Source: Solirubrobacterales bacterium (GTDB taxonomy: Bacteria; Actinomycetota; Thermoleophilia; Solirubrobacterales; Solirubrobacteraceae). From it: a stretch of DNA of 35,100 bases. A program made the translations under genes and the position numbers. The notes under the pieces are model-generated. The model had not been told where the DNA came from, ran no database searches, and worked only from the letters and a program-made list of their open reading frames with translations. The stretch's first letter is position 1. Each line of letters opens with the position of its first letter. The stretch covers positions 1-35,100 of the forward strand of contig JAFASQ010000444.1 in assembly GCA_019244395.1 (NCBI GenBank), read 5' to 3'. Below are positions 5,898-33,835 of the stretch, one piece after another.

Positions 5898-6671
5898 CTA
5901 TTGTGCGCCGGGGATCCGCGCGGCACTGTAGAAGGCGACGTATCGGTCGATCTCGCCCTCGCGGCTGATCTCGGCGGTAGAGAAGAACGTGCCCCCGGCG
6001 GGGATGCCCTCGATGATCCCTTCGACAAACACCCGGCTGTCCCGTTGCCAGAGATTGGTGACGATCTGGCGCGCCGGGCTCGCTCCGCGCTCGGTGGCGA
6101 ATCCGAGCTCGAGCGCGTCCCGGCCCCGGAAGAGGACGCGCGCGTCCCCGCCCGCATAGGGTGGATGCGAGTAGAGCGTGCCCGCGGCGAAATGCGCCGC
6201 GGCATCGCGGAACCTTGACGCCACGAGGTCGGCGAAATATCGCTCGAGGATCGGTCGCCCGTCCGGGACGGATTCGACGTCGTCCAGCGCGCTTGGCGGG
6301 ACCAGCGGCGCTTGGAGCCACACGAGTCGGGACACCTGGCCACCGGGCCCGTAGGTGAGGCCAGCGAGGCAGGTCTCGGGTTCGGCGTCGCTGTGACGAG
6401 CGATCTCCGCCCAGCAGGCCTGGTCCGAGCGCACGGTCGCAACCACCGCGAGGCTCGACGGCGCGAGACGGGCGAGTGCCGCGGTGCTGGCCTCGGCGCC
6501 GCTCACCGACTCGATGGCCGCGGTCAGGCCCTGCTCGGAACTGGCGAGCCAGGCCCGTGCGTCGGGGGCCAAGCAGCTTGCAGGCGTCCGGCCCGTCGTC
6601 CGGCTTGAGCCCTCTACGAGCGCGAGGACATCCTCGAGGGCATCCAGGCCCGGTGCCTGAAGTGAAGTCAT
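5898..6671 (-). CDS. SnoaL/NTF2-like fold protein (257 aa)
   Basis: The C-terminal half (about residues 140-250) reads as a SnoaL-like NTF2 domain: ILERYFADLVASRFRDAAAHF, then LYSHPPYAGGDARVLFRGRDAL and a final strand GEIDRYVAFYSAARI. The N-terminal half (LDALEDVLALVEGSS...) is not recognised; it may be a second degenerate cone-shaped domain. Such proteins are small-molecule cyclases, isomerases or binding proteins; the substrate is unknown. The start ATG at 6671 is embedded in the operator-like sequence TGAAGTCA. A -10-like TAGCAT lies 6 bases upstream, which predicts a leaderless mRNA. This is the leftmost gene carrying the window's shared operator. A second SnoaL-like gene lies at 29306. 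Confidence 0.65.
   Translation of the reverse strand: MTSLQAPGLDALEDVLALVEGSSRTTGRTPASCLAPDARAWLASSEQGLTAAIESVSGAEASTAALARLAPSSLAVVATVRSDQACWAEIARHSDAEPETCLAGLTYGPGGQVSRLVWLQAPLVPPSALDDVESVPDGRPILERYFADLVASRFRDAAAHFAAGTLYSHPPYAGGDARVLFRGRDALELGFATERGASPARQIVTNLWQRDSRVFVEGIIEGIPAGGTFFSTAEISREGEIDRYVAFYSAARIPGAQ
6663..6670 (-). promoter_or_regulatory. TGAnnTCA operator overlapping start of SnoaL-like gene
   Basis: On the minus strand the site is ACATGACTTCACTT, an exact TGAnnTCA core overlapping the ATG. The -10-like TAGCAT (6683-6678) ends 6 bases before the start codon. Confidence 0.55.
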
Positions 6672-6725
6672 GTAGTCATGCTACAGCGCTGCCGTGCGCC
6701 GTCTAGGAGCTCGGGTGTCGCGGAG

Positions 6726-7197
6726 CTAGCGCGCCGTCGGAAGCCCGAGGGGCGCCGTGAAACTGCGAGGCGCCTTCTGGTACTGCGGCTCGGAGGTCAG
6801 GGCGCTGCTGATCGCGTCGGCCGCGCGGATCATGCGCCGACCCTGGCGGCGGACCCTCTGCGCTGTCGGCGTATTCCAGCCCACTGGATTCGCCAGCCGT
6901 TCATGGCCTCCGTCGAAGAGATCCAGGGCGATCGTCTCGAGGAAGAATCGGGGCGCGATCATTCGCACCTCGTCCGACGGCTCTCCCCAAGCGAGGGTCT
7001 CGAGCTGGTCGACGCACAGATCGAGGATTGCGCGCAACCGCGCCGCGTCCTTCCGACTCGGCAGAGGCTCGTCAAAAGGCCGGTCGAGCTCGGACGCGAG
7101 CTGGATGCGCAGCGCGCGAGCAACTTCCCTGGCAACAGCGGATTCAGCGTCACGCCAATCCGTTACTCATCGCGTGTCCGAAAGGCGATGTCTGCAT
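6726..7197 (-). CDS. Unknown protein, probably frameshifted
   Basis: From the minus-strand ATG at 7197, preceded by GAGGGAGGGAG, the frame reads MQTSPFGHAMSNGLA and stops. Shifting by one base at the AA of 7157-7158 gives a long open frame (WRDAESAVAREVARALRI... to GLPTAR) ending at 6726. The joined product is about 156 aa, with helical segments such as AILDLCVDQLETLA and MIAPRFFLETIALDLF. I do not recognise the family. It lies divergent from the TetR gene at 7400 and in line with the SnoaL-like gene. The good Shine-Dalgarno and consistent downstream frame favour a real gene with a single indel, but a chance open frame remains possible. Confidence 0.4.
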
Positions 7198-7399
7198 CTC
7201 CCTCCCTCTTTTCCCGGCGAGCTGGCTGCGGCGGTGACCTTGCCCCACCGACGGCGGCCGTGGTATTCCCAGAGCCGGATTCAGGTCAAACGGCGCGATG
7301 GCCGCCGTCCGGGTCGGACCGCTGACATTCGTTGCAACGGTCCCGCGAGGCGCCTGCGCCTATCATTGCGGCGTTCGTTCGCTCCCGCGAGGAGAGACT

Positions 7400-8152
7400 T
7401 TGCCGCCCACCCGGTCGGGGCCCCCATCCAGCCGAAGCAACTCTGGCGCCGGCGCATCTTCGCGCAGCAAGCGGGAGGAGATCCTGCGGACCGCGACCGC
7501 GTACTTCGGCGAGAACGGTTATGAGGCGACCAAGCTCGCCGATGTGGCGGCGGCGGTCGGGATCGGATCGACCGCCCTGTACCACTACTTCGAGTCCAAG
7601 CTTCACTGCCTCTACGTCATCATGGCGGACGCCCTCGAGTTCTTCCACAGGGAGTTCGACCGCCAGACGAGCGCACATGACGATTACCTCGACGCGCTGC
7701 TCGCGGTGCTCTCCGGCTCGTATGAGTTGAGCGACCAGGACATTCTCCGCAATCGCGTGCTCGTCGCCGAACTGGGGCTCATGGGTGTTCCGAGGACGTC
7801 TCCTCGCGAGGAGGAGGCCCGCACGCTCGCGCGCTCTCGGATCCGGGACGTCGAGTTCGCCTGGGCCACGTTCCTCGTGCGTGGCATGGAGCAGGGAATC
7901 GTGCCCGAGGCCGACCCCCGTCTTCTCACTCGTGCGCTCCTCGGTCTATACAACAGCATCTGGCACTGGTATCGCCCGCGGGGGTCGATCAGCCTGGACG
8001 AGGTGAAGGAGTTCTTCCTTCGCCGGCAGTTGGCCGTGCTCGGCCTTCCGCCCGAGCTGGCGGATGGCGACCGGTCGCTCCAGCCCGCCGGCGGGGGCAA
8101 AGCGGCCTCGGCCTCGCGCAGGTCCCGCGGGCGCCGGCGCGCGGCTACGTAG
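7400..8152 (+). CDS. TetR/AcrR-family regulator (paralogue 1)
   Basis: A TetR repressor of 250 aa. The N-terminal DNA-binding domain is [20 protein letters not shown] followed by [20 protein letters not shown] (helix-turn-helix). The ligand domain carries [20 protein letters not shown] and a C-terminal [14 protein letters not shown] motif shared with the other two TetR proteins at 22112 and 25987. I chose TTG 7400 because GGAGAG lies 3 bases before it and the family-like sequence begins soon after; an ATG at 7298 would add residues unlike the paralogues. The tail is Arg/Ala-rich. TetR proteins next to acyl-CoA dehydrogenases, thiolases and ligases typically sense acyl-CoA thioesters; by location this one may control the adjacent phasin/hydrolase divergent promoter. 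Confidence 0.88.
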
Positions 8153-8879: not shown

Positions 8880-8889
8880 GCAACTGAGA

Positions 8890-8897
8890 TGACGTCA
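8890..8897. promoter_or_regulatory. TGACGTCA operator in the phasin/hydrolase divergent promoter
   Basis: An exact TGAnnTCA palindrome between the divergent genes. Toward the plus strand, -10-like TAAGCT (8909-8914) ends 6 bases before the ATG at 8921 (leaderless). Toward the minus strand the site itself supplies a -35-like TTGACG for the phasin gene, with CTAGCT-type sequence about 17-18 bases on. Confidence 0.6.
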
Positions 8898-8920
8898 ATT
8901 CAGTTTGCTAAGCTGTCGCG

Positions 8921-9733
8921 ATGACGAGTGGCGCACCCGCCGAATCGCGCACCCGGCCGCCAGTCCTGTTTCTGACCGGTGTCGGCCTCACGGCGGCGGT
9001 GGCCCTTAGGGCGATCGCCGAGCTTCGGACTCGCTTTCGGCTCCTGGAGCCGCGGCTCGGCGAGCCGCGCCAGACGAGGCGCACCCCCGTGCCTACGGCC
9101 GAGGGCGCGCTCAGGTCGCTTGATGCGGCCGACGTCGACCAAGCGCACATCGTCGGCCTGTCGTTCGGGGCAACCGTCGCCCAGGAGATCGCCACCCGGT
9201 ACCCGCAACGCGTCCGCTCGCTCGTCCTCGGCTCATCCACTGCCGGCGGCGAGCTGTACACCCCGCCGGAGCCGGCGGTCCGCGACTTCATCCGCCGCCT
9301 CGCCGAACTGCCGGCCGAAGAGGGGTTGTGGGCGTCGGTTCCGTATCTCTACGCCCCAGGCACCCTCCGCCGGCATGGGCTGCTGATCGGCGCGGACATC
9401 ACGCAGCGGCTCCGCCTGCCGCTCGATCCGGAGACCTACCGCGGTCAACTGGACATCGCCCGCGGCCATGACAGCGCAGCGCGCCTAGCCGAGATCTCCG
9501 CGCCGACACTCGTCGTTCACGGAGCGCAGGACCGAATCCTGCCCCTCGACAATGGCCGCTTGCTGGCCGAGGGCATCGCGGGAGCGCGGTTCCTGCCCCT
9601 GCCGGGCGCCGCCCACGCCTTTCCTACCGACGTGGCCGAAGCGAACCAGGAGCTCGTCAGCTTCCTGCTGGCCCACTCGCCGCGGCGACGGGGCTCGCCG
9701 GCGAGACGTACCGGGCGCGCAGCTCGCGCTTGA
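8921..9733 (+). CDS. Alpha/beta hydrolase (divergent paralogue A)
   Basis: A 270-aa hydrolase with catalytic Ser81 in GLSFG, Asp204 in HGAQDRIL and His232 in GAAHAFPTD. It is a paralogue of the hydrolase at 11320-12135: both share RSLVLG, WASVPY.Y, APTLVVHGA.DR and the overall cap layout. Unlike that copy it lacks the usual HG oxyanion motif and D-x-RG-x-G loop; the N-terminal strand reads VLFLTGVGLTAAVALRAI and the next 40 residues are shortened. The substrate is unknown. Next to a phasin-like gene and the PHA operon, an intracellular PHA depolymerase, oligomer hydrolase or lactonase is a reasonable inference. The start ATG is predicted leaderless. The 3' end overlaps the convergent ligase gene by 77 bp. 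Confidence 0.8.
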   Translation: MTSGAPAESRTRPPVLFLTGVGLTAAVALRAIAELRTRFRLLEPRLGEPRQTRRTPVPTAEGALRSLDAADVDQAHIVGLSFGATVAQEIATRYPQRVRSLVLGSSTAGGELYTPPEPAVRDFIRRLAELPAEEGLWASVPYLYAPGTLRRHGLLIGADITQRLRLPLDPETYRGQLDIARGHDSAARLAEISAPTLVVHGAQDRILPLDNGRLLAEGIAGARFLPLPGAAHAFPTDVAEANQELVSFLLAHSPRRRGSPARRTGRAARA

Positions 9734-11231
9734 GCACCTTGCCGGCGGGGCTGTGCGGAAGCTCGCCGACGAACTCGATCGAGCGCGGCAGCTTGTAGCC
9801 GGCCAACCGGTCACGAGCGAACGCCACAAGCTCATCGGGATCGATGGCCACTCCCGGGGCGGGAACGACGAGTGCCTTGACCGTCTCGCCCCATCTTTCG
9901 TCAGGAACGCCGATCACCGCGACCTCGACGACGGCGGGATGTTGGGAGATCACCTCCTCGACCTCGATCGGGTAGATGTTCTCCCCGCCACTTACGATCA
10001 TGTCCTTGATCCGGTCGGTGAGGAACAGGTAGCCGTCCTCGTCGAGGTAGCCGCCGTCACCGGTGCGCAGCCAGCCGTCCGGGGTGAGGGCGGCGGCTGT
10101 CTCGGCGCGACGGTTGTAGTAACCGACCATCACGTTGGGCGCGCGCAGCCAGACCTCGCCGACACGGCCCGCGGCGCAGTCGTGACCGTCCAACGGATCT
10201 ACGATCCGCATCTCCACCCAGGGGAGAGGATGCCCGGCGGATCGCAACAGGTGCTGACGCGCGCCGGCGGCATCGTGGTCCTTCGGACGCAGCTGAATAA
10301 CGCCGCCGGTCGTCTCGGTCAAGCCGTAGACGCCGAACAGGGGACAGCGGAAGGTCCGCAGCGCGGCCCGGAGAACGGGCGTGGTGATCGGCGAGGCGCC
10401 ATAGGTGATCGAACGCAGACTCGAGTAGTCGCGCTCGGCCGCGCCGGGGACGGCGGCCAGCAATTGCAGGATCGTGGGGACGAACACGGCGTTTGTCACC
10501 CGTTCGCGCTCGAGCAGATCGATGACCCGTGCTGCGTCGAACTCGCTGACGAGGATCGTCGTAGCACCTTTCACGAGTCCGAGGTAGGCCCAGCCGATCC
10601 CGCCGATGTGGAACATCGGCAGCGGGGTCACACTGACCGATCGGGAGTCGAACAGCCACACATCGGCGCTCAGGTAGGCGGCGGCGAGGTTCCGCTGGGT
10701 CGTCAACACACCCTTCGGCAGGCCGGTGGTCCCCGACGTGTACATCTGCACCGCGACGTCACTCGCCGCCCCGCGGTGGCCGGGGTCAGTGGCAGCGGAC
10801 GCCTGCAGGCGCTGCTCGTAGTCATCGCCCGTGTCGATCACCTCCAGCCGCTGCGGCAGCACTCGGGCGATGTTTCGCGCGACCTCGCGGTAGCGCGGCC
10901 CGGCGATCATCATGCGGCAGCCCGCGTCCGCGACGATCGTCTCGAGCTCGGCCGGCGCCAGCCGCCAGTTGAGCGGGACCGTGACGGCTCCGATCTTGCT
11001 CGTCGCGAACAGCAGCTCGACGATCTCGGGCGCGGTGCGGTCGAGGTGCGCGACTCGGTCCCCGGCGTGCACCCCGGCCGACAGCAACGTCTGAGCCAGC
11101 CGGTTCGAGCGGTCGTCGAGCTCGGCGTAGCTCAAACACCGCGCGCCACAGCGAAGCGCAACCACGTCCGGTCGACGCAGCGCGTGCTCCCGGACGACGT
11201 CGGCGACGCGAAGATCCTCGAGAACCTGCAC
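9657..11231 (-). CDS. Acyl-CoA synthetase, AMP-forming (fatty/aromatic acid-CoA ligase)
   Basis: A 524-aa ANL-superfamily enzyme that activates a carboxylic acid to its CoA thioester through an acyl-adenylate. Motifs in order are the P-loop YTSGTTGLPKG, FHIGGIGW, GYGLTETTGG-like VYGLTETTGG, the hinge region GWLRTGDGGYLDEDGYLFLTDRIKD, SGGENIYPIEVEE, and the catalytic Lys near the C terminus in SPAGKVLKRELR. I chose GTG 11231 (VQVLEDLRVADVV) because family alignment begins there and the operator TGACCTCA abuts it; an in-frame start at 11300 would run through the operator. It lies 88 bp downstream of the hydrolase gene, with its own promoter. It may supply hydroxyacyl-CoA or fatty acyl-CoA to the pathway. 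Confidence 0.88.
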   Translation of the reverse strand: MQVLEDLRVADVVREHALRRPDVVALRCGARCLSYAELDDRSNRLAQTLLSAGVHAGDRVAHLDRTAPEIVELLFATSKIGAVTVPLNWRLAPAELETIVADAGCRMMIAGPRYREVARNIARVLPQRLEVIDTGDDYEQRLQASAATDPGHRGAASDVAVQMYTSGTTGLPKGVLTTQRNLAAAYLSADVWLFDSRSVSVTPLPMFHIGGIGWAYLGLVKGATTILVSEFDAARVIDLLERERVTNAVFVPTILQLLAAVPGAAERDYSSLRSITYGASPITTPVLRAALRTFRCPLFGVYGLTETTGGVIQLRPKDHDAAGARQHLLRSAGHPLPWVEMRIVDPLDGHDCAAGRVGEVWLRAPNVMVGYYNRRAETAAALTPDGWLRTGDGGYLDEDGYLFLTDRIKDMIVSGGENIYPIEVEEVISQHPAVVEVAVIGVPDERWGETVKALVVPAPGVAIDPDELVAFARDRLAGYKLPRSIEFVGELPHSPAGKVLKRELRARYVSPASPVAAASGPAGS

Positions 11232-11239
11232 TGAGGTCA
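11232..11239 (-). promoter_or_regulatory. TGAnnTCA operator abutting the ligase start codon
   Basis: The minus strand reads TTGACCTCA immediately followed by the GTG start at 11231. A weak -10-like TTGAAT (11245-11240) precedes it by 8 bases, so the transcript would be leaderless or nearly so. Confidence 0.5.
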
Positions 11240-11319
11240 ATTCAATCAGACGGGCCGCGCGACGCCTCGACGAGAGAGGATGCGGGGCGGCGGGACGCAA
11301 CCGGGAAGCGTGGCGGGCC

Positions 11320-12957: not shown

Positions 12958-14061
12958 TCAGGACGGCGAATCGCTGTGGTCGATGATCCAGCCGGTGAGC
13001 TTCGGCATGGTGTGCTTGAAGGCGGACTTGCCGGTTCCAAACGTGACGTGACCGCCGGGAAGCCGGAGCTCCTCGCGCCTGGCGGGGTCTCCCACCAGCT
13101 GCATAATCGGCTCCACGGCAGGCGGTGGGACGACGTTGTCGCGCTCGGCCATCGCGTTGAGGACGTTGCCGCGGAAAGTCCCGAGGTCGACCTGTCGACC
13201 ACCGAGGGGCATCGAACCGGTCATGAGGATGTTCCGGCGGACGAGCAGGTCAACCAGCTGGCGGAAGGCGGCGCCGGGAAAGGGCACATGGTCACGCGAC
13301 CACGTCGCCATTGCCTGGAAGCCCTCCACGAACTCGTCGTTCCAGAGGTTCTCCAGGAACGTCGCCTTCTGAGCCACCTCGACCGTGGGCGCGAGCATGT
13401 AAAAGCCGCTATAGAGCGCGTCGGCCGGAACGTTGCCGGTCTCGTCGATCAGCTCATCCGGATCGAGCCGGTCCTCGCGGAGTAGGGCGACCATCGCCCC
13501 CATCTCGCTGTAGTCAACCGGTGTGGCCATCAGGATCAGGTTGCGTACGCCCGGGTCCTCGTAGCCCGCCGCGTACAGGGCCGCGATGACGCCGCCCAGG
13601 CAATAGCCGGCGAGCGTGACCTCCTCATGGCCACTCGCGCTGCGCGCCGCCTCGAGCGCACGCGGCAGGTACCAGTCGACGTAGCGTTCGAAGTCGTTGT
13701 CGGCGTCGAGATCGTCGGGGACCCCCCAATCGAGCATGAACACGTCCAGCCCCGCGCGCGTGAGGTACTCGACCGTGCTGTTGCCCGGCCGCAGGTCGAG
13801 GATGTAGCTCCGGCTGACCAGGCTGTGGACGATGACCAGCGGCGGTCCGTACCGGCGGTCGCCGCCTTTGTAGCGCCAGAGCTCCGCCTTGTCGCGCTTC
13901 CAGACGACCTCCTTCGGAGTCATGCCGAGGGCCGGCCGATGGCTGCCCCGGACGTAGCGGATCCCGTTGCGTGCGCGCAGGACCGATCGCTCGACGTCGC
14001 GATTGACCCGGGTCAGCAGCTCGCCAGGATTGAGCGTGGACGGGATCCTCGGGTTTATCAC
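12958..14061 (-). CDS. phaC: Polyhydroxyalkanoate synthase, class III-like catalytic subunit
   Basis: A 367-aa PHA synthase that polymerises hydroxyacyl-CoA into granule polyester. The lipase-like box has Cys in place of Ser: Cys154 in AGYCLGG. Asp308 in AERDNVVPP and His338 in PGGHVTFG complete the triad, at spacings like those of class III PhaC. PPLVIVHSLVSRSYILDL and FMLDWGVPD are further PhaC signatures. I chose GTG 14061 because it overlaps the TGA of the upstream PhaE-like gene (GTGA, 4 bp) and gives the usual class III length of about 360 aa; upstream extension to 14346 would read antisense-like Arg-rich sequence. The partner subunit, GNAT, phasin-like and hydrolase genes form one operon. 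Confidence 0.92.
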   Translation of the reverse strand: MINPRIPSTLNPGELLTRVNRDVERSVLRARNGIRYVRGSHRPALGMTPKEVVWKRDKAELWRYKGGDRRYGPPLVIVHSLVSRSYILDLRPGNSTVEYLTRAGLDVFMLDWGVPDDLDADNDFERYVDWYLPRALEAARSASGHEEVTLAGYCLGGVIAALYAAGYEDPGVRNLILMATPVDYSEMGAMVALLREDRLDPDELIDETGNVPADALYSGFYMLAPTVEVAQKATFLENLWNDEFVEGFQAMATWSRDHVPFPGAAFRQLVDLLVRRNILMTGSMPLGGRQVDLGTFRGNVLNAMAERDNVVPPPAVEPIMQLVGDPARREELRLPGGHVTFGTGKSAFKHTMPKLTGWIIDHSDSPS

Positions 14062-14369
14062 ACGTCCGCGCCCGATCCGTCCTCGTCCAGCTCGCCGACC
14101 TCGTGGGACAGCTGGTTGAGTCGCCGCTCCATGCGGGCGAGCTGCTGGCGCATGCCGCGCATGTCCGATCCGGCGGGCAGATTCAGCAGGTGCAGGCATC
14201 GGCGCGATACCCCCTCGGCCGTGCCCATCACCTTGCGTCGCACGCGGGTCGTCGTGCTGACCAGGTCGAAGTAGGTGTCCGAACGGACCGCCGACTCGAT
14301 CGGCTCGCCAATCGCTCGCTCCAGTCGAATTACGGCGCGTAGCCATAGGGGCTGATTGTCTGGCATCAC
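14058..14369 (-). CDS. Very short PhaE/PhaR-like PHA synthase subunit (103 aa)
   Basis: A 103-aa helical protein directly upstream of and overlapping phaC. The C-terminal LNLPAGSDMRGMRQQLARME continuing into RRLNQLSHEVGELDE resembles the conserved tail of PhaE and PhaR: a 'lnlPtksD' turn followed by a heptad coiled coil with which they contact PhaC. PhaR is about 200 aa and PhaE about 350 aa in characterised bacteria, so this would be a minimal version; the N-terminal region is only about 65 residues (PLWLRAVIRLERAIGEPIES). The start is taken as GTG 14369 (GTG-ATG in frame) because -10-like TAGCGT ends 6 bases before it. Identification rests on position and the C-terminal pattern. Confidence 0.6.
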   Translation of the reverse strand: MMPDNQPLWLRAVIRLERAIGEPIESAVRSDTYFDLVSTTTRVRRKVMGTAEGVSRRCLHLLNLPAGSDMRGMRQQLARMERRLNQLSHEVGELDEDGSGADV

Positions 14370-16296: not shown

Positions 16297-16328
16297 GTCA
16301 CTGGGGATCAGCCGCTGCCGTAGGCCTA

Positions 16329-16345
16329 ACTGAACCGAGTTCAGT
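16329..16345 (-). promoter_or_regulatory. 17-bp palindromic operator for the MBL gene
   Basis: ACTGAAC-tcg-GTTCAGT on the minus strand is a perfect 7-bp inverted repeat. It contains TGAACTCG, one mismatch from TGAnnTCA. A -10-like CATACT overlaps its upstream edge. Confidence 0.5.
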
Positions 16346-20773: not shown

Positions 20774-20775
20774 GC

Positions 20776-24930: not shown

Positions 24931-24935
24931 CTGTC

Positions 24936-26688: not shown

Positions 26689-26703
26689 GATGCCTCTTTC
26701 TTT

Positions 26704-26719
26704 TGAAGTGATCCCAACT
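26704..26719 (-). promoter_or_regulatory. Promoter/operator of TetR paralogue 3
   Basis: Minus strand TAGAGT (-10-like) followed by TGGGATCACTTCAAAAG. TCACTTCA is one mismatch from TGAnnTCA. The arrangement is the same as at 26814-26832 on the other strand. Confidence 0.5.
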
Positions 26720-26813
26720 CTATCAACGGCAGCGGCCGGGCCAATCCGGATCACCGAAATCCCCCATTGGCCGGAGCTGCGTGCGTCGGGTTGCGCCCGG
26801 GAGCTCGGCTCGA

Positions 26814-26833: not shown

Positions 26834-27595
26834 GTGAGAGAAAATGCTAATCAGCTCGACGGTCGTGTCGTCATCATCACGGGCGCCAGCTCCGGGCTGG
26901 GTGCCCAGGTCGCGCGCGCCATCGGAGAGGCCGGCGGGACTCCAGTTCTGGCCGCGCGGCGGGCCGAGCGGCTGGCCGCGCTCACTGAAGAGATTCCAAA
27001 CGCCGCGACGATCATCTGCGACGTCACCGATGGGTCCGACCGCGAGCGCCTCGTCGACCACGTCGCAGATCGGTACGGCCGGCTTGACGGGTTGATCAAC
27101 AACGCCGGCGCCGGCGCCACCGCTCCCGCCCTCCGGACCACGGCAGAGACCTTTGCCCGCGTTCTCGACCTGAACCTGGTCGCCCCGTATGCCCTCTCCG
27201 TCCTGGCCGCGCAGCGGATGCGGCACGGAGGAGGCCGCTCGATCGTCAACATTGCGTCGGTGATGGGATTACGTTCGATCGGGCCGATTCCGGACGCTGC
27301 CTACGTCGCGTCGAAGGCCGGCATGATTGGCTTGACCCGGGAGCTCGCGTCGCAGTGGGGTCGCTACGGGATCCGCGTGAATGCCGTCGCTCCCGGTTTC
27401 TTTGCGACCGAGATGAACCCGGGACTGGGTGAGGACCCCGAGCAGTTCCCAGAGTTCCTGCTGTCGCGGACGCCACTGGGACGCGGCGGCCGCGCCGGCG
27501 AGCTCAACGACGCCGTGCTCTTTCTGCTCGGCCCGGGCTCGAGCTTTATCACCGGAACCGTGCTCAGCGTCGACGGAGGGATGGCCATTGCCTGA
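26834..27595 (+). CDS. Short-chain dehydrogenase/reductase (SDR)
   Basis: A 253-aa classical SDR: VIITGASSGLGAQVARAI cofactor loop, ICDVTD, LINNAGAGATAP, catalytic Ser in VNIASVMG, Tyr-x-x-x-Lys in AAYVASKAGMIGLTRELA, the VNAVAPGFFATEM loop and a final SVDGGMAIA. Start GTG 26834 is the only in-frame start before the Rossmann strand; the codon three before it is a stop (TGA). It lies 45 bp upstream of an acyl-CoA synthetase gene. A hydroxyacyl-CoA or hydroxysteroid dehydrogenase role is likely; the sequence does not fix the substrate. Confidence 0.9.
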   Translation: MRENANQLDGRVVIITGASSGLGAQVARAIGEAGGTPVLAARRAERLAALTEEIPNAATIICDVTDGSDRERLVDHVADRYGRLDGLINNAGAGATAPALRTTAETFARVLDLNLVAPYALSVLAAQRMRHGGGRSIVNIASVMGLRSIGPIPDAAYVASKAGMIGLTRELASQWGRYGIRVNAVAPGFFATEMNPGLGEDPEQFPEFLLSRTPLGRGGRAGELNDAVLFLLGPGSSFITGTVLSVDGGMAIA

Positions 27596-27640
27596 TTGCC
27601 GCGCACTACGACTCGACTACATGGAAAGCGGAGGAAGGCA

Positions 27641-29218
27641 ATGCCGACCCTGAGATTTCAACCCGAAGCCGACCGCTATTACGCCGAGGGATACTGGCGG
27701 GACGGGGACCTGTGGAGCGACTTCGCCCGTCGCGCCGAGGAGAACCCGCAGAAGCCGGCGCTGATCCTCGACGATCGCGTGTTCACGTTCGATCGGCTCC
27801 GGCGTGCGGCAGTTGGCGTCTCGGTCCGGCTCGCCGAGGGCGGCGTCGAGCCCGGCGACGTCGTCATCCTCCTCGGCCGTCACTCGATCGAGGCGGCGGT
27901 GGCGATGCTCGGCTGCATGCACCGCGGTGTGGTCATCGCGCCGCTGCCGCCGATGTTCAACGAGAAGCAACTCTCGGCGTTGATCGCGCAGACCGACGCC
28001 AACGCCTTGCTCGGCTTCGGCGGGGACAAGGAGCTGGCCAAGTGCCGGCAAGTGGCCGATCAGGTCCCGCTCTTTCTAGCCGTTGCGCCTGAACTCGTGG
28101 ATCGCCTGGCCGAGGACGGCCATCCCGAAGAGCACGTACTGCGCCACGGCGACGATCTGGCCATGGTGCTCCACTCCTCCGGGACCACGTCCACCCCGAA
28201 GGGCATTTCGCACTCCAACAAGACGCTGCGTTACGCTACCGAGGGCATCTGCAAACGCTGGGAGCTGACTAGCGAGGACGTATACCTCGTGGTCTGCGAG
28301 TTCGGATTCGTGGGCGGCCTGGTGTTCGGTTACTTTCCGCCTCTGTTCAACGGCGCGACCGGGGTGCTCGTCAACCGGTGGAACGCCGAGGCCGCTCTGC
28401 GGTTGATTGAGGCGCACCAATGCACATATGTCCTCTCAATGCCGACACATTCGGCTGACCTGATTGAGGCAAAGGTGGCGAGCGGTCTAGAGCTTCCTTC
28501 AATGCGCGTGCTCGCCGCGCCCGGTCTCACGCGCGAGCGCCGGCTCGCCATGAGAGAGGCATTCGGCGTCTCGCCGCTCGGCGACTACGGCCTGTCCGAG
28601 GTCCCGGGGCACGCCGCACATGGGCTTCAAGAGCCCGAGGCGAAGATCGCCCTAACCGAAGGCCGTCCCTACGACGGCACCGAGATCCGGATCGTCGATG
28701 ACAATGAGCAGGCCGTCCCGCCGAACGCCGTCGGCTCGGTGATCGTCAACGGCCCGAGTCGCTTCCTGGGCTTCCTGGGCAACGACGAGCTGACGCGGGA
28801 GTCACTGACCGAGTGGGGCGGCTACCGAACCGGCGACCTAGGCTATCTCGATGAGGACGGGCAGTTCGTCTACGTGGGCCGCAGCAAGGACATCATCCGC
28901 CGCGGCGGCGTGACCATCGTCCCCTCCGAGGTCGAGCCCGTGATCATGCGCCATCCCAACGTTCGGGAGGTCGCGATCGTCCCGCTCCCCGACGAACGGC
29001 TGGGCGAACGCGCTTGCGCCGCGGTAATTCCGGTGGAGGGCAAACCAGCACCGTTGCTCGAGGAGCTGCAGCAGTTCCTCGATCAGGAGGGAGTGGCGAA
29101 ATACACGTGGCCTGAGTCGGTCGAGGTCTTCGACGAGTTCCCGCGCACGCCGTCACTCAAAGTGGTCAAGCGGGACGTCGTGACGCAAATCCTCGAGCGC
29201 TCGAGGGTGACGGCCTAG
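27641..29218 (+). CDS. Acyl-CoA synthetase, cyclohexanecarboxylate/benzoate-CoA ligase-like
   Basis: A 525-aa ANL ligase distinct from the two others: it opens RYYAEGYWRDGDLWSDFARR as in 2,3-dihydroxybenzoate-AMP ligase and AliA-type enzymes. Motifs: HSSGTTSTPKGISHSN, YGLSEVPGHA, GGYRTGDLGYLDEDGQFVYV with GRSKDIIRRGGVTIVPSEVE, and catalytic Lys in TPSLKVVKRDV. GGAGG lies 7 bases before ATG 27641 (the frame also has an ATG at 27596 without a site). Co-oriented with the SDR. Ring acids such as cyclohexanecarboxylate or a steroid-derived acid are likely substrates by family. Confidence 0.9.
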   Translation: MPTLRFQPEADRYYAEGYWRDGDLWSDFARRAEENPQKPALILDDRVFTFDRLRRAAVGVSVRLAEGGVEPGDVVILLGRHSIEAAVAMLGCMHRGVVIAPLPPMFNEKQLSALIAQTDANALLGFGGDKELAKCRQVADQVPLFLAVAPELVDRLAEDGHPEEHVLRHGDDLAMVLHSSGTTSTPKGISHSNKTLRYATEGICKRWELTSEDVYLVVCEFGFVGGLVFGYFPPLFNGATGVLVNRWNAEAALRLIEAHQCTYVLSMPTHSADLIEAKVASGLELPSMRVLAAPGLTRERRLAMREAFGVSPLGDYGLSEVPGHAAHGLQEPEAKIALTEGRPYDGTEIRIVDDNEQAVPPNAVGSVIVNGPSRFLGFLGNDELTRESLTEWGGYRTGDLGYLDEDGQFVYVGRSKDIIRRGGVTIVPSEVEPVIMRHPNVREVAIVPLPDERLGERACAAVIPVEGKPAPLLEELQQFLDQEGVAKYTWPESVEVFDEFPRTPSLKVVKRDVVTQILERSRVTA

Positions 29219-29292: not shown

Positions 29293-29314
29293 TATTGTCG
29301 CTGAAATGACTTCA
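29293..29314 (+). promoter_or_regulatory. Leaderless promoter with operator over the start codon
   Basis: -10-like TATTGT (29293-29298), 7-base spacer, then ATG 29306. The exact operator TGACTTCA (29307-29314), followed by AGT, overlaps codons 1-3, so the repressor would sit on the start of the message. Confidence 0.6.
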
Positions 29315-29722
29315 AGTCGGACAGACCCGCCGGCGCGGCGGGCACCCGGGAAGACGTTCTTCGAGCGGTACTTCGAGCTCCTCGACAGCGCGGATCCCCA
29401 CAGCTCGCTCGACCTGGTGGCGGGCGACCTGGAGTTCTCAATCCAGTGGGCCGCGGACGGCACGCGCAAGAGCAGTCAGTTCGTGGGCGGACGCGACGAG
29501 CTGCGCGGATTCATCGATGCGGGTGACATGGAGGGTTGGGCTCACTACGTGTTGCACAGCGGTGTCAGCGGCAAGGTGGAATTCGCCTTGGGGGAGACGC
29601 GCTGGGATAACGGTGCGCGCATAGGCACGTTTCTGGCCGTCGCCGAGCTCGACGAGTCGCGCCGGATGCGTCGGTACATGGTGGCGCGTTCTCCCGTGCT
29701 GACCTTTCCGCCCGATCCATGA
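29306..29722 (+). CDS. SnoaL/NTF2-like protein (138 aa)
   Basis: A 138-aa protein with the NTF2-like layout: TFFERYFELLDSADPHSSLD helices, GDLEFSIQWAADG strand, FVGGRDELRGFIDA, and late strands FALGETRWDNGARIGTFLAV and RMRRYMVARSP. SnoaL-like proteins in steroid and polyketide pathways act as isomerases, cyclases or hydratases. First gene of a tightly coupled operon: its TGA overlaps the ATG of the DUF35 gene by 4 bp, which in turn overlaps the thiolase-like gene. Predicted leaderless. Confidence 0.78.
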   Translation: MTSSRTDPPARRAPGKTFFERYFELLDSADPHSSLDLVAGDLEFSIQWAADGTRKSSQFVGGRDELRGFIDAGDMEGWAHYVLHSGVSGKVEFALGETRWDNGARIGTFLAVAELDESRRMRRYMVARSPVLTFPPDP

Positions 29723-30153
29723 CCAAGACGCGCCAGTTTCGCCTGATCGATCCTGAGCTGATCGGCGGCACCGAGCAGGTGCCGCGGCTGATCGGGTCGG
29801 TTTGCGCTGGGTGCGGTACGGTCACCTTTCCGCGCCAGCGTTCGTGCCCCCGGTGCACCTCCGAAGACGTCCAGCCCCGCGAGCTGGCGATACGCGGTGA
29901 GCTTTGGAGCTGGACGATCCAGTGCTTTGCACCGAAGGCGCCGCCGTACCTCCCGGGAGGGGTTGAGGAGTTCGAGCCCTACGGCGTCGGGTACGTCGAG
30001 CTCCCCGGTGAGGTCCGTGTGGAGGCCCGCCTGACCGAAAGCGATCCGGAGCGGTTGCGGATCGGCATGAGCATGGAGCTGACGCTGATCCCCGTTCCCG
30101 GAGCGAGCGACACGCTGACCTTCGCCTTTCGGCCGGTGGAGGAAGACGAATGA
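29719..30153 (+). CDS. DUF35 zinc-ribbon/OB-fold acyl-CoA-associated protein
   Basis: A 144-aa protein with an N-terminal zinc ribbon (CAGC at 29-32 and CPRC at 43-46) and a C-terminal OB fold (IRGELWSWTIQCFAP, GYVELPGEVRVEARL, IGMSMELTLIPV). DUF35 proteins bind acyl-CoA and partner with thiolase-fold enzymes; in actinobacterial steroid side-chain degradation the ChsH2 DUF35 domain forms the Ltp2 aldolase complex. Here the gene overlaps both neighbours by 4 bp (ATGA junctions) and directly precedes a thiolase-fold gene, so it is almost certainly that enzyme's partner. Confidence 0.92.
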   Translation: MTKTRQFRLIDPELIGGTEQVPRLIGSVCAGCGTVTFPRQRSCPRCTSEDVQPRELAIRGELWSWTIQCFAPKAPPYLPGGVEEFEPYGVGYVELPGEVRVEARLTESDPERLRIGMSMELTLIPVPGASDTLTFAFRPVEEDE

Positions 30154-31304
30154 GCGCCGGCGACGACGTCGCGGTCGTCGGCGTCGGCATCCACGTATTT
30201 GGCCGGCACGATGGCGTGACCGGGCTCGAGATGGGCGCGATAGCGGCCCGCCGCGCGCTGGCCGACGCGGGGATCACGTGGCAGGACGTCGACTTCGCCG
30301 CCGGCGGTTCGGATGCTGCCGGCAACGCGGACACCTCCGTCTCGATCCTGGGACTGACTGGCGTTCCGTTCATCAACGTCAAGAATGGCTGCGCGACCGG
30401 AGGATCCGCGCTGACCACCGCTCACGCCATGCTCGTTTCCGGTGCGGCCGACCTCGCGCTGGTCGTCGGCTTCGACAAGCACCCACGGGGGGCGTTCAAT
30501 CCTCTGCCGGAAGACTGGGGCATCGGCTCCTGGTATGGCGAGACTGGACTGATGCTCACGACGCAGTTCTTCGCTCTGAAGATCCGGCGTTACATGGAGG
30601 AGCACGGCATCACTGAGTCGACGCTGGCCAAGGTGGCGGCCAAGGCCTTCGCCAACGGCGCACGCAACGAGAACGCGTGGCGGCGAACCCCGCTCAGTGA
30701 ACAGGAAATCCTCTCCTCCCGGATGGTCAACCATCCGCTGACCCAGTATATGTTTTGCTCCCCGGGGGAGGGAGCGGTCGCGCTCGTCCTGGCCCGTAGC
30801 CGCCGCATACGCGAGCTGGCGAGGGTGCCAGTGTACCTGCGGTCCGTCGCTTTCCGGACGCGGCGCTTCGGGTCGTTCGAGGTGTTCAGCCCGTCGATCC
30901 CGATCGAGTCCGCGCCGTCGGCAACGACCGAGGCCGCTGCGGCCGCATTCGAGGAGGCCGGCATCGGACCCGGCGATGTCGACGTGGCGCAGATTCAGGA
31001 CACCGAGTCAGGAGCGGAGGTCATGCACCTCGCCGAGACCGGACTGTGTGAGCACGGAGAGCAGGAGTCACTCATCCAGAGCGGCGGGACCGAGCTCCAT
31101 GGCCGGCTTCCGATCAACACCGACGGCGGCTGTCTGGCCTGCGGGGAGCCGATCGGCGCCTCAGGGCTGCGACAGGTACACGAGGTCGTGCTTCAGATGC
31201 GCGGCGACGCCGGCGAGCGACAGGTTGCCAAGCACTGTCGTGTCGGCTTCACCCAGGTGTACGGAGCGCCCGGCGTGAGCGCCTGCACCGTGCTCACGGT
31301 CTGA
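30150..31304 (+). CDS. Thiolase-fold lipid-transfer-type enzyme (Ltp/SCP2-thiolase-like)
   Basis: A 384-aa thiolase-fold protein. The nucleophile-position Cys81 (KNGCATGGSA) is present. The C-terminal signature that in thiolases reads GHP reads ACGEPIGASG, so the catalytic His is Glu333, and the second Cys region reads VYGAPGVSACTVL. This fits the lipid-transfer-protein/thiolase-like subgroup that works with DUF35 partners, whose known members include retro-aldolases (Ltp2). Claisen-type thiolysis is therefore doubtful; an aldol-type C-C cleavage of a beta-hydroxyacyl-CoA is a reasonable hypothesis. Start ATG 30150 overlaps the DUF35 stop. Confidence 0.88.
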   Translation: MSAGDDVAVVGVGIHVFGRHDGVTGLEMGAIAARRALADAGITWQDVDFAAGGSDAAGNADTSVSILGLTGVPFINVKNGCATGGSALTTAHAMLVSGAADLALVVGFDKHPRGAFNPLPEDWGIGSWYGETGLMLTTQFFALKIRRYMEEHGITESTLAKVAAKAFANGARNENAWRRTPLSEQEILSSRMVNHPLTQYMFCSPGEGAVALVLARSRRIRELARVPVYLRSVAFRTRRFGSFEVFSPSIPIESAPSATTEAAAAAFEEAGIGPGDVDVAQIQDTESGAEVMHLAETGLCEHGEQESLIQSGGTELHGRLPINTDGGCLACGEPIGASGLRQVHEVVLQMRGDAGERQVAKHCRVGFTQVYGAPGVSACTVLTV

Positions 31305-31359: not shown

Positions 31360-31380
31360 TGAACTCAGGTTGGCTACAAT
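31360..31380 (+). promoter_or_regulatory. TGAACTCA operator and -10 box of an SDR gene
   Basis: AAACTGAACTCAGGTT with exact TGAnnTCA (31360-31367), then a near-consensus -10 TACAAT (31375-31380). Predicted start point is about 31387, leaving a leader of about 7 bases before ATG 31394. Confidence 0.65.
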
Positions 31381-31393
31381 GGGCTACCGGATC

Positions 31394-32185
31394 ATGGAGC
31401 GAAATTTATCTTCGGAGCCAGGCGGGGGGTTGGTTGGAGGCGGGCGCCTCGCCGGCAAGGTCGCGCTGATCACAGGTGCGGCGAGGGGGATGGGAGCAGC
31501 CCACGCGCGGGCCATGGTTCGGGAAGGAGCCGCCGTCGCCATTGTCGACATCGCTGCGGAGGCTGGCGAGCGTCTGGCCGCGGAGTTGCGGGACGGCGGC
31601 GGCCGAAGCTCCTACCACCACCACGATCTCATCGATCCGGACGCGTGGCTGGGGCTCGTTGACGCCGTGGAACGGACCCACGGGCCGATCGACGTGCTCG
31701 TGAACAACGCCGGTGTCCAGGTCCGTTCGGTCGGCATCGAGGCCGACGATGACGAGTGGGCGAAGGTCACGGCCATCAATCAGCGCGGCGTGTTCCTGGG
31801 TATGCGGGCGGTCATACCGGGCATGGCGCGGCGCCGAACCGGCTCGGTTATCAATGTGGCGTCGGTGGCGGCGCTGGTCGGCCTGCCCGGATCGATCCCT
31901 TATCAGGCGAGCAAGGCGGCGGTGCTCGGGCTTACTCGAGGCGCCGCGGTCTCATATGGTCCCGACAATGTCCGCGTGAACGCGATCTGTCCTGGTCTGG
32001 TCGTCACCGGGATGACCGACAGCGCACCGTCCGCAGCAGTCGACGCGATGAAGGCACAGATCCCACTACGTCGCGATGGTCGGCCCGCCGAAATCTCGGC
32101 CGCCGTCGTGTTCCTGGCCTCGGACGACTCGTCCTACATCACCGGCGTCGTGCTGCCGATCGATGGCGGCTTCGTCGCGCGGTAG
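31394..32185 (+). CDS. SDR, 3-alpha/20-beta-hydroxysteroid dehydrogenase-like
   Basis: A 263-aa classical SDR: GKVALITGAARGMGAAHARA, IDVLVNNAGVQ, Ser in INVASVAAL, Tyr-x-x-x-Lys in IPYQASKAAVLGLTRG, and LPIDGGFVAR. TGAARGMGAAHARA recalls 3-alpha(20-beta)-hydroxysteroid dehydrogenases, and resembles SDRs that use mycofactocin; an MftD homologue is encoded 1.8 kb away. I take ATG 31394 rather than TTG 31370 or ATG 31379 because the -10 box TACAAT covers those codons. Convergent with the FAD oxidoreductase. Confidence 0.88.
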   Translation: MERNLSSEPGGGLVGGGRLAGKVALITGAARGMGAAHARAMVREGAAVAIVDIAAEAGERLAAELRDGGGRSSYHHHDLIDPDAWLGLVDAVERTHGPIDVLVNNAGVQVRSVGIEADDDEWAKVTAINQRGVFLGMRAVIPGMARRRTGSVINVASVAALVGLPGSIPYQASKAAVLGLTRGAAVSYGPDNVRVNAICPGLVVTGMTDSAPSAAVDAMKAQIPLRRDGRPAEISAAVVFLASDDSSYITGVVLPIDGGFVAR

Positions 32186-32432: not shown

Positions 32433-32435
32433 GTC

Positions 32436-33779
32436 CTACGCGGAGGCTGCGCGCTCTGCGATGGCGGTCGCTGCTGCCTGCAGGCCGAACACCAGCGCGC
32501 ACGCTAGACCGCCGGCGTACGCGCGGTTGAACACCCCGCCCGCATCCGCCCCGGCGGCAAGCAGGCCGGGAATCGCCTCGCCCGATTCGTCCAGTACGCG
32601 CGCCTGAGGATCGATCCTCAGGCCGCTGAACGTGAAGGTGATGGCGGGAATGACCTCGATGATGTAGTAGGGAGGGGTGAGCAGCGGCAGGGCATCGAGC
32701 TCGCGGCCGGGATTCGGCGCCCCGGCTTCGCATTGCCGGTTGAACTCGAGCAGGGTGTCGCGCGACGCCGGCCCCGGATAACCCCATTCGTCCGGCAGCG
32801 CCTCGAACTCCTCGATGGCGTCCGCGACCGCGGCGCGGGCGCTGCGGCGATACGCTAGCTGGAACTTATCGAGCGGCTCGACCCCCTCGACATAGGGCAC
32901 CATCATCCACTCGTCGCGTACGCGCTGGTCATATACGAGCAGCGCCCGCGCATCCGACTGGTCGAGCACATGTAGGGCATTCAGGTGATCGCCGACCGTC
33001 TCGTCGCAGAACCGCTTGCCCTCCAGGTTGAGCAGCACCCCGTGCTCGGAGTGGTAGAAGGTGAGGTCCGTGAACTCGTAGGGGTTGTTGTAGGCGACCT
33101 TCGAGGGGATTAGATGGCCGTAGAAGCCGGCATTCGGTGGGCCGAACATGGCGCCTACGGACAAACCGAGCCGAAGGCCGTCGCCGACACTGTTCGGATT
33201 GGCCCGCAGTGGCAGGTTCGCCGCCAGCGGATGGATGTGTTCGGCGCGCATCGCCGGATCGCCGCCGAAACCCCCGGTCGCTAGCAGCGTCGAGCGGGCG
33301 CGTATCACGCGCCTCGCGCCGGCTCCGTTTTCGACCTCCGCGCCGACGACGGCTCCATCCTCAAACAGCAGAGCATGCGCCGACCAACCGGTGAGCACCT
33401 CGCCGTGGTCGCGTACCAGCCGATCGCAAGCCAGCAGGTAGTTAGCCATGTCGGTCTGGCTCCCGCGCCCGTAGCCAAGCACCGTGACGGGATCCGCGAC
33501 ATTGACGCCGAGCGACCGGACCCAGTCCAGCGCCGCGGCGAAATGCTCGACCACCTGCGCCGACAACCCGGGGTCTCCATCGGGGTTGACCTCCCGCATC
33601 ACCTCGATCGTCGGTGCGGTCCAGATGAAGCCAGCGTAGATCGCGGAGCCGCCGATCGCCTCGCCCTTCTCGACGAGCACCACGCTGGCGCCGTCGCTGC
33701 ACGCGCGCGCCGCCGCGCTCATCCCGGCCATCCCGCCACCGAACACGAGCAGATCGACAATTGAATCTGAATCAGACAT
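32436..33779 (-). CDS. FAD-dependent oxidoreductase, KstD/fumarate reductase-like
   Basis: A 447-aa flavoprotein: VDLLVFGGGMAGMSAAARAC dinucleotide loop with VVLVEKGEAIGGSAIYAGF (Glu ligand of the ribose, then the GGS segment), STLLATGGFGGDPAM, FTFSGLRIDPQARVLDESG, and the C-terminal GADAGGVFNRAYAGGLACAL that binds FAD. The layout matches the 3-ketosteroid delta-1-dehydrogenase/fumarate reductase superfamily (447 aa, slightly short for KstD). It probably introduces or removes a C=C bond in a cyclic or steroid-like acyl substrate. AGGAGAGG precedes ATG 33779 by about 10 bases. Probably regulated through the dyad and operator-like site upstream. Confidence 0.88.
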   Translation of the reverse strand: MSDSDSIVDLLVFGGGMAGMSAAARACSDGASVVLVEKGEAIGGSAIYAGFIWTAPTIEVMREVNPDGDPGLSAQVVEHFAAALDWVRSLGVNVADPVTVLGYGRGSQTDMANYLLACDRLVRDHGEVLTGWSAHALLFEDGAVVGAEVENGAGARRVIRARSTLLATGGFGGDPAMRAEHIHPLAANLPLRANPNSVGDGLRLGLSVGAMFGPPNAGFYGHLIPSKVAYNNPYEFTDLTFYHSEHGVLLNLEGKRFCDETVGDHLNALHVLDQSDARALLVYDQRVRDEWMMVPYVEGVEPLDKFQLAYRRSARAAVADAIEEFEALPDEWGYPGPASRDTLLEFNRQCEAGAPNPGRELDALPLLTPPYYIIEVIPAITFTFSGLRIDPQARVLDESGEAIPGLLAAGADAGGVFNRAYAGGLACALVFGLQAAATAIAERAASA

Positions 33780-33795
33780 CGCTTGCTGCCTCTCC

Positions 33796-33835
33796 TGAAG
33801 TGTTGTAAGCTTCTGCGCTACATGAGCTTACTTCA
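33796..33835 (-). promoter_or_regulatory. Dyad and operator-like site upstream of FAD oxidoreductase
   Basis: GTAAGCT (33805-33811) and AGCTTAC (33825-33831) form a perfect 7-bp inverted repeat around 13 bases, flanked by TGAAG (33796-33800) and CTTCA (33831-33835). TTACTTCA (33828-33835) is one mismatch from the TGAnnTCA core. It could be a hairpin in the leader or paired repressor sites. Confidence 0.4.

What the first reader, a model, noticed from the sequence alone, without database searches (positions are those of the whole stretch)
6663..33835. One palindromic operator at nearly every promoter, with three TetR paralogues inside the same region
Seen: exact TGAnnTCA cores at 6663, 8890, 11232, 14396, 16458, 26825, 29307 and 31360, each at a gene start or -10 region. 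One-mismatch versions occur at 16331, 21957, 22075, 26704 and 33828. The arms trend toward ACTTGAnnTCAAGT. The TetR genes at 7400, 22112 and 25987 have near-identical recognition helices ((S/P)TALYHYF) and share a WHWYRP motif. Known: TetR repressors of acyl-CoA pathways bind such palindromes. Inference: these regulators, alone or interchangeably, coordinate fatty/steroid-type acid catabolism with PHA storage as one regulon. The motif does not match the KstR consensus I know.
Basis: partly seen in the sequence, partly recalled or inferred. Interest (0 to 1): 0.8.

Follow-up and report, generated by a model that had tools for sequence, protein, structure and literature searches.

The report
One DNA switch across a catabolic island
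A soil actinobacterium carries the same 20-letter DNA switch at almost every promoter of a gene island that probably breaks down fat- or steroid-like molecules and stores the carbon, with three sister repressor genes inside the island; the switch is real and shared with related bacteria, but repressor binding is inferred, not shown.

Summary
A matrix from relatives' sites finds 15 sites in the window and 1 in 169 kb of other contigs of this genome. Own-genome matches with up to 2 mismatches: 14, reversed control 1; 10 lie on the window contig or on C67, a second catabolic contig, and 4 inside called genes. In Solirubrobacter soli 18 sites fill 48 kb and 0 lie in the 32 kb around it. All 13 tested TetR genes of this subfamily have a site at their start; 0 of 5 of a sister subfamily do. 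In 299 genomes of the class, sites track the subfamily (4 of 4 against 13 of 295, P 7e-6). Sites abut -10-like hexamers, which suggests repression by occlusion. A phaC operon is included. Substrate and ligand are unknown. That several paralogues share the operator is inferred; AvaR1/AvaR2 of Streptomyces do so. New member of a known kind.

The parts
6657..6676 (.). operator, overlaps the start codon of the SnoaL-like gene 5898-6671(-)
   Evidence: 18.5 bits with the matrix from relatives
7270..7289 (.). weak operator upstream of TetR1
   Evidence: 13.7 bits; only 9.4 with the window-trained matrix
8884..8903 (.). operator, 0 mismatches to CTGANNTGANNTCANNTCAG, before the hydrolase at 8921
11226..11245 (.). 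operator at the start of the acyl-CoA ligase (9657-11231 or -11300, minus strand)
   Evidence: 22.2 bits
14390..14409 (.). operator in the 3' end of the SDR gene, just upstream of the small-protein/phaC operon
   Evidence: 16.9 bits; a site also lies before phaC in S. soli, G007 and G280
16330..16349 (.). operator, MBL/SDR side of a divergent promoter
   Evidence: 16.7 bits; register 5 bp to the left nearly as good with the window matrix
16452..16471 (.). operator, ECH/ACAD side of a divergent promoter
   Evidence: 24.7 bits
21951..21970 (.). operator, ACAD-ACAD-APH operon side
   Evidence: 20.0 bits
22069..22088 (.). operator before the TetR2-ligase operon
   Evidence: 1 mismatch; 19.4 bits; identical 20-mer before the TetR2 orthologue of G007
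   Evidence: 20.0 bits
26703..26722 (.). weak operator at the 5' end of TetR3
   Evidence: 12.2 bits
26819..26838 (.). operator between TetR3 (-) and SDR-ligase (+)
   Evidence: 25.0 bits
29301..29320 (.). operator overlapping the ATG of the SnoaL-like/ChsH2-like/thiolase operon
   Evidence: 25.0 bits
31354..31373 (.). operator before SDR, next to TACAAT
   Evidence: 25.4 bits
33822..33841 (.). operator before the FAD_binding_2 dehydrogenase (32436-33779, minus strand)
   Evidence: 19.4 bits
7298..8152 (+). TetR1 (real start probably later, about 7373-7448; inference)
   Evidence: PF00440 + PF17932
22112..22747 (+). TetR2, member of the TetR2-type subgroup
   Evidence: PF00440 + PF17932; tree
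25987..26754 (-). TetR3 (start may be 26685)
   Evidence: PF00440 + PF17932; model pLDDT 87.4
12958..14061 (-). phaC-like PHA synthase, lipase-box GYCLGG
   Evidence: 268.8 bits to TIGR01836, below its cut-off of 365.3; PhaC_N above Pfam's cut-off on the longer frame 12958-14346; sequence
14058..14366 (-). 102-aa protein, PhaE/PhaR-like by eye only
   Evidence: no NCBIfam hit; Pfam not run on it; the protein in the same place in S. soli has no Pfam or NCBIfam hit
9657..11300 (-). acyl-CoA ligase
   Evidence: PF00501; PRK06187 subfamily above cut-off
14379..15155 (-). SDR
15235..16434 (-). metallo-beta-lactamase-fold protein
16495..18578 (+). enoyl-CoA hydratase and acyl-CoA dehydrogenase
18582..21951 (-). 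APH-domain protein and two acyl-CoA dehydrogenases
22744..24288 (+). acyl-CoA ligase
24891..25973 (+). CurA-like reductase
26834..29218 (+). SDR and acyl-CoA ligase
29306..31304 (+). 138-aa SnoaL-like protein (by eye, no Pfam hit), OB-fold ChsH2-C protein, lipid-transfer-type thiolase
31370..32185 (+). SDR
32436..33779 (-). FAD_binding_2 dehydrogenase

Best explanation
This is a local TetR-family regulon. Dimers of a distinct TetR subfamily (three intact copies here) bind a 20-bp two-step palindrome, YTGAACTGAV|BTCAGTTCAR, that lies on or beside the -10/+1 of nearly every promoter of a catabolic island, and block transcription. An acyl-CoA made by the island's own ligases probably lifts repression, switching on uptake, beta-oxidation-type degradation, the regulators themselves and PHA storage together. 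Shown here by sequence: operator, distribution, promoter position, co-occurrence with the TetR subfamily, conservation. Inferred: binding, repression, acyl-CoA ligand, substrate (an alicyclic, steroid- or isoprenoid-like acid), and that more than one paralogue uses the operator.
For: Matrix from relatives: 15 window sites at 12 bits or more where 0.2 are expected; 1 in 169 kb of 20 other contigs. Own genome, up to 2 mismatches: 14 against 1 reversed control; 7 on the window contig (two of them overlapping registers of one site), 3 on C67, 4 inside called genes. Seven other genomes with the TetR subfamily: matches/control 10/2, 9/3, 6/2, 4/0, 7/0, 12/3, 9/1. 61 of 63 sites non-coding or within the first 30 nt of a gene. 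S. soli: 18 sites in C3 44-92 kb, 0 in the flanking 14 and 18 kb, with a matrix trained without S. soli (the edges were drawn after one search showed 8 of its 12 matches at 46.8-90.7 kb). 13 of 13 subfamily TetR genes carry a site of 12.9 bits or more between 250 bp upstream and 30 bp into the gene, against 0 of 5 sister TetRs (best 6.3). Class-wide: sites with up to 1 mismatch in 4 of 4 genomes holding the subfamily, 13 of 295 others, Fisher P 7e-6. TANNNT is 5- to 7-fold enriched at -20 to -6 from the site centre. Solved structures near the model include AibR with isovaleryl-CoA, KstR2, and B. subtilis FadR with stearoyl-CoA.
Against: No binding or expression data. Sister TetRs with the same TALYHYF helix lack the operator upstream. 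The site in front of TetR1 is weak: 13.7 bits, 9.4 with the window matrix. The matrix from relatives was trained on sites chosen with the window matrix, so it is not fully independent, and its training set includes sites before some of the relatives' TetR genes that it then scores (not those of the window, C67 or G242). In G242 the TetR has only a 12.9-bit site, its contig shows no homologues of the island's enzymes, and its one match with up to 1 mismatch is on another contig. 13 of 295 genomes without the subfamily also have a match with up to 1 mismatch, and 4 of S. soli's 12 matches lie off the island. DarR, a top structural match, is solved with a cyclic dinucleotide, so an acyl-CoA ligand is not certain. 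Four of the 8 genomes show only one TetR of the subfamily (drafts 73-92% complete).
Confidence: 0.85

Rival explanations
1. Several paralogues use the same operator but answer to different acyl-CoAs, with or without heterodimers, so that the island integrates several signals at one site. (This refines the best explanation rather than contradicting it.)
For: Each intact window TetR and the truncated one on C67 has a site upstream. TetR2-type and other copies of the subfamily coexist in four genomes (window, G007, AC_49, S. soli), a split with 92/96 support. DNA-binding domains are 69-71% identical, ligand domains 51-63%. Precedent AvaR1/AvaR2: same motif, competition, heterodimer (PMC5744401, passages read).
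Against: No binding data. DNA-binding-domain identity is no higher than to two sister TetRs that lack the operator (67-74%). Four of 8 genomes show one TetR only.
Confidence: 0.5
2. Only one paralogue runs the regulon; the others are duplicates on their way out or control something else.
For: Genomes with a single TetR found still carry many operators (G004, G280). A fourth copy on C67 has lost its middle. TetR1's own site is weak.
Against: TetR2-type and other copies are kept together, with operators, in four genomes.
Confidence: 0.35
3. The palindrome is the site of an unrelated regulator, and the TetR genes are merely targets.
For: A Crp-family gene on C67 also carries a site. I did not search all islands for other regulators.
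Against: Sites co-occur with the TetR subfamily (4 of 4 genomes) and are absent upstream of the sister TetRs; the palindrome and the autoregulatory position are what a TetR would use (general knowledge).
Confidence: 0.05
4. Chance or low-complexity effect of AT-rich promoters.
For: TGAnnTCA alone is common: 3.9 expected in the window.
Against: The outer arms were found independently; 18 against 0 across the island edges in S. soli; Poisson P 4e-23 in the window.
Confidence: 0.01

Closest known systems
KstR2 / KstR regulons (mycobacterial cholesterol catabolism)
   Same: TetR repressors over a local acyl-CoA catabolic cluster, palindromic operators in divergent promoters, autoregulation; KstR2 is among the structure and sequence matches
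   Different: KstR2 motif AnCAAGnnCTTGnT with three sites per genome (PMC3068626, passages) is not clearly enriched here, nor is KstR's (recalled) motif; KstR model 24-35 bits against a cut-off of 280
AvaR1/AvaR2/AvaR3 (Streptomyces avermitilis)
   Same: three TetR paralogues at one locus; AvaR1 and AvaR2 share one motif (PMC5744401, passages)
   Different: they control antibiotic and signal genes, not a catabolic island; the related ScbR model scores 32-41 bits against 150
PfmR / TTHA0973 of Thermus thermophilus
   Same: among the nearest solved structures (3vpr); local catabolic regulon. That 3vpr is TTHA0973 is recalled
   Different: motif AACnAACGTTnGTT (PMC6651687, abstract) is not enriched here
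FadR of Bacillus subtilis
   Same: TetR with acyl-CoA ligand; similar fold; TGA-containing half-sites (recalled)
   Different: recalled motif TGAATGAnnnnTCATTCA absent; model 22-36 bits against 200
BkaR (mycobacteria)
   Same: TetR repressor of branched-chain acyl metabolism, autoregulated, dimer on a palindrome (PMC3920632, passages)
   Different: core GTTAnTnnnnAnTAAC; not scanned for here
MftR (mycofactocin)
   Same: TetR with long-chain acyl-CoA effectors; a mycofactocin gene homologue sits in the S. soli island
   Different: motif T-N2-GGCA-N5-TGCC-N2-A (PMC8728441, passages; not scanned for here); model 30-49 bits against 224.9

Membership tests
TetR family | TetR_N helix-turn-helix (PF00440) and a TetR C-terminal domain | tested here: met
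   PF00440 and PF17932 above cut-off for all three
KstR | NCBIfam KstR equivalog cut-off 280 bits | tested here: not met
   24-35 bits
KstR | operator TNNAACNNGTTNNA (recalled) | tested here: not met
   1 site with up to 1 mismatch, mean of 8 block shuffles 1.75
KstR2 | operator AnCAAGnnCTTGnT | tested here: not met
   1 site with up to 1 mismatch, mean of 8 block shuffles 0.25, maximum 1
FadR (Bacillus type) | NCBIfam FadR cut-off 200 bits | tested here: not met
   22-36 bits
MftR | NCBIfam MftR cut-off 224.9 bits | tested here: not met
   30-49 bits
ScbR/AvaR autoregulator receptors | NCBIfam ScbR-type cut-off 150 bits | tested here: not met
   32-41 bits
acyl-CoA-responsive TetR repressors (as a way of working) | acyl-CoA releases the repressor from DNA | not testable with these tools
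   fold neighbours only
local TetR regulon with one operator | the regulators' own promoters and the cluster's promoters share one palindrome, rare elsewhere in the genome | tested here: met
PHA synthase (PhaC) | lipase-box cysteine and PhaC homology | tested here: met
   GYCLGG; PF07167 and PF00561 above cut-off; below the class III subfamily cut-off (268.8 of 365.3)

The most novel reading that the evidence does not exclude
One operator read by several paralogous TetRs with different acyl-CoA ligands: a many-inputs, one-site control of a whole catabolic island, with an old paralogue pair kept together across an actinobacterial class because the inputs differ, possibly through heterodimers.
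Probability: 0.4. Interest if true: 0.65.

Novelty: new member of a known kind. Interest (0 to 1): 0.5.

Why it matters
It gives a clean, testable operator and regulator set for Thermoleophilia; two searches of the held library listed no paper that, by title and start of abstract, describes a TetR operator from this group. The whole island in the cultured strain Solirubrobacter soli DSM 22325 makes it accessible. The operator works as a tag that outlines a 48-kb pathway of unknown substrate, and the retained paralogues allow a test of whether sister repressors sharing one site add signal integration or mere redundancy.

Tried and rejected
KstR, KstR2, B. subtilis FadR, Thermus FadR and TTHA0973 motifs: none clearly above 8 block shuffles (KstR2 1 against a mean of 0.25, maximum 1). 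Curated TetR families: no model reached its cut-off. Recognition helix as sole predictor of the operator: rejected, the sister TetRs share it. Possible third locus C205:4693 (17.8 bits): a lone site just upstream of a large regulator-like gene, not followed further; C291, C210 and C165 stretches have single sites of 11.0-11.8 bits. The 3-mismatch genome search (77 against 30 control) was listed only in part, so I used only its totals; I rescored 10 of its listed places. Substrate from NCBIfam: among the best 25 models shown per protein, two ligases and one SDR passed broad subfamily cut-offs and no equivalog did for the window and C67 enzymes scanned, so no substrate is claimed. Rows dropped: L071-L075, fetched, are other TetRs (77 bits or less), left out of the counts (L071 served as outgroup only); L060, L061 and L062 are the contigs also held as L080, L083 and L104 and were counted once. 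Gene calls behind the coding/non-coding counts come from a simple caller of my own, which sometimes trims starts. The 280-bit line between subfamily and sister TetRs was drawn after seeing the result; one search scored 9 candidates per genome.


Full report
WHAT WAS CLAIMED. A palindrome TGAnnTCA at nearly every promoter between 6.6 and 33.8 kb, three TetR paralogues inside, one regulon for fatty/steroid-type acid catabolism and PHA.

THE OPERATOR. All eight exact cores are present; the window has 10 exact cores against 3.9 expected. Aligning the 13 sites on their centre showed a second, outer arm that had not been selected for: CTGA at -10 to -7, with A at -7 in 23 of 26 half-sites. Leave-one-out outer-arm scores separate the eight sites (+2.7 to +12.6 bits) from all 13 TGAnnTCA found in 169 kb of 20 other contigs of the same genome (all negative) and from the two other exact cores in the window. 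From 44 sites in relatives (88 half-sites) the half-site is (C/T)TGAACTGAV, with A at -7 in 86 of 88, G at -3 in 81 of 88 and A at -2 in 85 of 88. These 44 sites were chosen with the window-trained matrix, so the two matrices are not fully independent, but no window letters went into the second. It finds 15 window sites at 12 bits or more; one such site occurs in the 169-kb control, so 0.2 would be expected in the window.

WHERE THE SITES ARE. In the own genome (5.69 Mb) the pattern CTGANNTGANNTCANNTCAG with up to 2 mismatches occurs 14 times against 1 for the reversed control. Seven are on the window contig (two of them overlapping registers of one site) and three on contig C67; the other four lie inside called genes and score 4.2 to 9.9 bits. 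C67 (19.1 kb) carries a branched-chain-amino-acid-type ABC transporter, a class III CoA-transferase, enoyl-CoA hydratases, SDRs and a molybdenum hydroxylase, with nine sites at 12 bits or more. Over twelve loci, 61 of 63 sites are non-coding or within the first 30 nt of a gene, where 6-26% of the sequence is of that kind; gene calls are from a simple caller of my own. The two exceptions are one site in L059 and 14390 in the window, which lies in the last codons of an SDR gene, directly in front of the phaC operon.

PROMOTER POSITION. In 83 site-to-gene orientations (divergent promoters count twice) TANNNT hexamers number 13, 9 and 9 in the three 5-bp bins from -20 to -6 from the site centre, where 1.8 per bin is expected and bins further upstream hold 0 to 3. 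The bins from +5 to +19 are raised too (6, 9, 7), partly because both directions of divergent promoters are counted. Some called starts lie inside the operator (29306, 6671, 26834). Operators that abut or cover -10/+1 fit repression by occlusion; this is inference.

RELATIVES. The TetR subfamily was found in Solirubrobacter soli, in Solirubrobacterales, Thermoleophilia and other actinobacterial MAGs, and in three of 24 same-genus genomes at E <= 1e-30. In S. soli, G004, G007, G019, G280 and AC_49 the contigs hold homologues of the same enzymes with operators between transcription units; the two G242 contigs do not show this: one site, and one weak enoyl-CoA hydratase homologue beside it. Genome-wide matches with up to 2 mismatches exceed the reversed control in all seven genomes (10/2, 9/3, 6/2, 4/0, 7/0, 12/3, 9/1). 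S. soli shows the whole island: SDR, MBL, ECH, ACAD, APH, phaC, thiolase, ChsH2-like, FadD, FAD dehydrogenase and SDR homologues of the window, two TetRs, 18 sites between 44 and 92 kb of its contig C3, none in the 14 kb before or the 18 kb after; this used a matrix trained without S. soli, but the edges were drawn after one search had shown 8 of its 12 matches at 46.8-90.7 kb; the other 4 lie elsewhere. In 299 genomes sampled from the class, the TetR subfamily (over 280 bits) occurs in four and all four have an operator match with up to 1 mismatch; of the other 295, two of which hold only the sister TetR and have none, 13 do (Fisher P 7e-6). A sister TetR subfamily (L065-L069), with the same TALYHYF helix, has no operator at the gene start in 5 of 5 cases (best 6.3 bits), against 13 of 13 in the subfamily (12.9 to 25.3 bits; the truncated C67 copy is one of the 13). 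The tree separates the two groups with 100/100 support. Some of the relatives' TetR promoters were in the matrix's training set; the window's three, C67's and G242's were not.

THE REGULATORS. The three window TetRs are 52-62% identical, with DNA-binding domains 69-71% and ligand domains 51-63% identical. TetR2 belongs to a subgroup (92/96 support) that sits beside another copy of the subfamily in four genomes: the window's, G007, AC_49 and S. soli. Four other genomes (G004, G019, G242, G280; 73-92% complete) show one copy. C67 holds a fourth, truncated copy: the first part of the DNA-binding domain joined to the C-terminus, between two operators. The model of TetR3 (pLDDT 87.4) is closest to DarR, PfmR, AibR, an unnamed Thermobifida TetR, KstR2, B. 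subtilis FadR and BkaR; AibR and FadR are solved there with acyl-CoAs, DarR with a cyclic dinucleotide. No curated TetR model reaches its cut-off.

THE PATHWAY. Acyl-CoA ligases, acyl-CoA dehydrogenases, enoyl-CoA hydratases, SDRs, an OB-fold ChsH2-like protein next to a lipid-transfer-type thiolase, and a FAD_binding_2 dehydrogenase. S. soli adds a P450, a ferredoxin and a ferredoxin reductase. This looks like degradation of an alicyclic, steroid- or isoprenoid-like acid; the substrate is not established. The phaC operon (a small PhaE-like protein, PhaC with GYCLGG, a GNAT-like protein, a small phasin-like protein, a hydrolase; the small proteins named by eye) has an operator in the window, S. 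soli, G007 and G280; in AC_49 the contig ends first.

COMPARISON WITH THE KNOWN. It works like KstR2 (PMC3068626), BkaR (PMC3920632) or PfmR, with a different operator, and the TetRs fall below the cut-offs of the curated families tested. Sharing of one operator by TetR paralogues, with heterodimers, is known for AvaR1/AvaR2 (PMC5744401). Papers: abstract and outline of PMC6651687 and PMC5597230; passages of PMC3920632, PMC8700777, PMC5744401, PMC3068626 and PMC8728441; the rest only as search listings. In the held library, the searches TetR + Solirubrobacter + operator (3 papers) and Solirubrobacter/Thermoleophilia + steroid/PHA/regulator (2 papers) listed nothing on this regulon by title and abstract start; subscription journals are mostly not held.

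VERDICT. A real, well-bounded TetR regulon of a known kind, not described in what those searches could see. The open and more interesting question is whether the retained paralogues read the same site with different ligands.

Noticed in passing
L018 (contig C67) 17030-17398: Truncated fourth TetR paralogue: first part of the DNA-binding domain joined directly to the C-terminus, with operators at 16978 and 17395 on either side; true deletion or assembly artefact not decided.
   Followed up: partly
L137 6539-7732 (S. soli C3 76.5-77.7 kb); L018 18519-19070: A gene passing the cut-off for pre-mycofactocin synthase MftD (694 bits, cut-off 471) lies in the S. soli island; a weak fragment match (59 bits) lies at the end of C67. 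Mycofactocin-coupled enzymes may be part of the pathway.
   Followed up: no
window 22069; L081 2545; L082 4951; L083 7354; L063 1362: The site next to these TetR genes carries TCG in place of TCA in the inner arm nearer the gene; S. soli's TetR2-type gene does not. Possibly a tuned autoregulatory site.
   Followed up: no
window 29306, 6671, 26834; L080 5975; L063 1367: Called start codons lie inside the operator, as if these transcripts were leaderless.
   Followed up: no
L065-L069 upstream of TetR: The sister TetR subfamily has its own conserved promoter block (about GTGTAGGGTTGCGCGCGTCC) and, in the loci gene-called, a neighbourhood almost without homologues of the island's enzymes.
   Followed up: no
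window 5509-5826: PemK/MazF-like toxin gene (64 bits, Pfam) just left of the island; no operator of 12 bits or more near it.
   Followed up: no
L112 4693 (C205): Lone strong operator-like site (17.8 bits) just upstream of a large regulator-like gene.
   Followed up: partly
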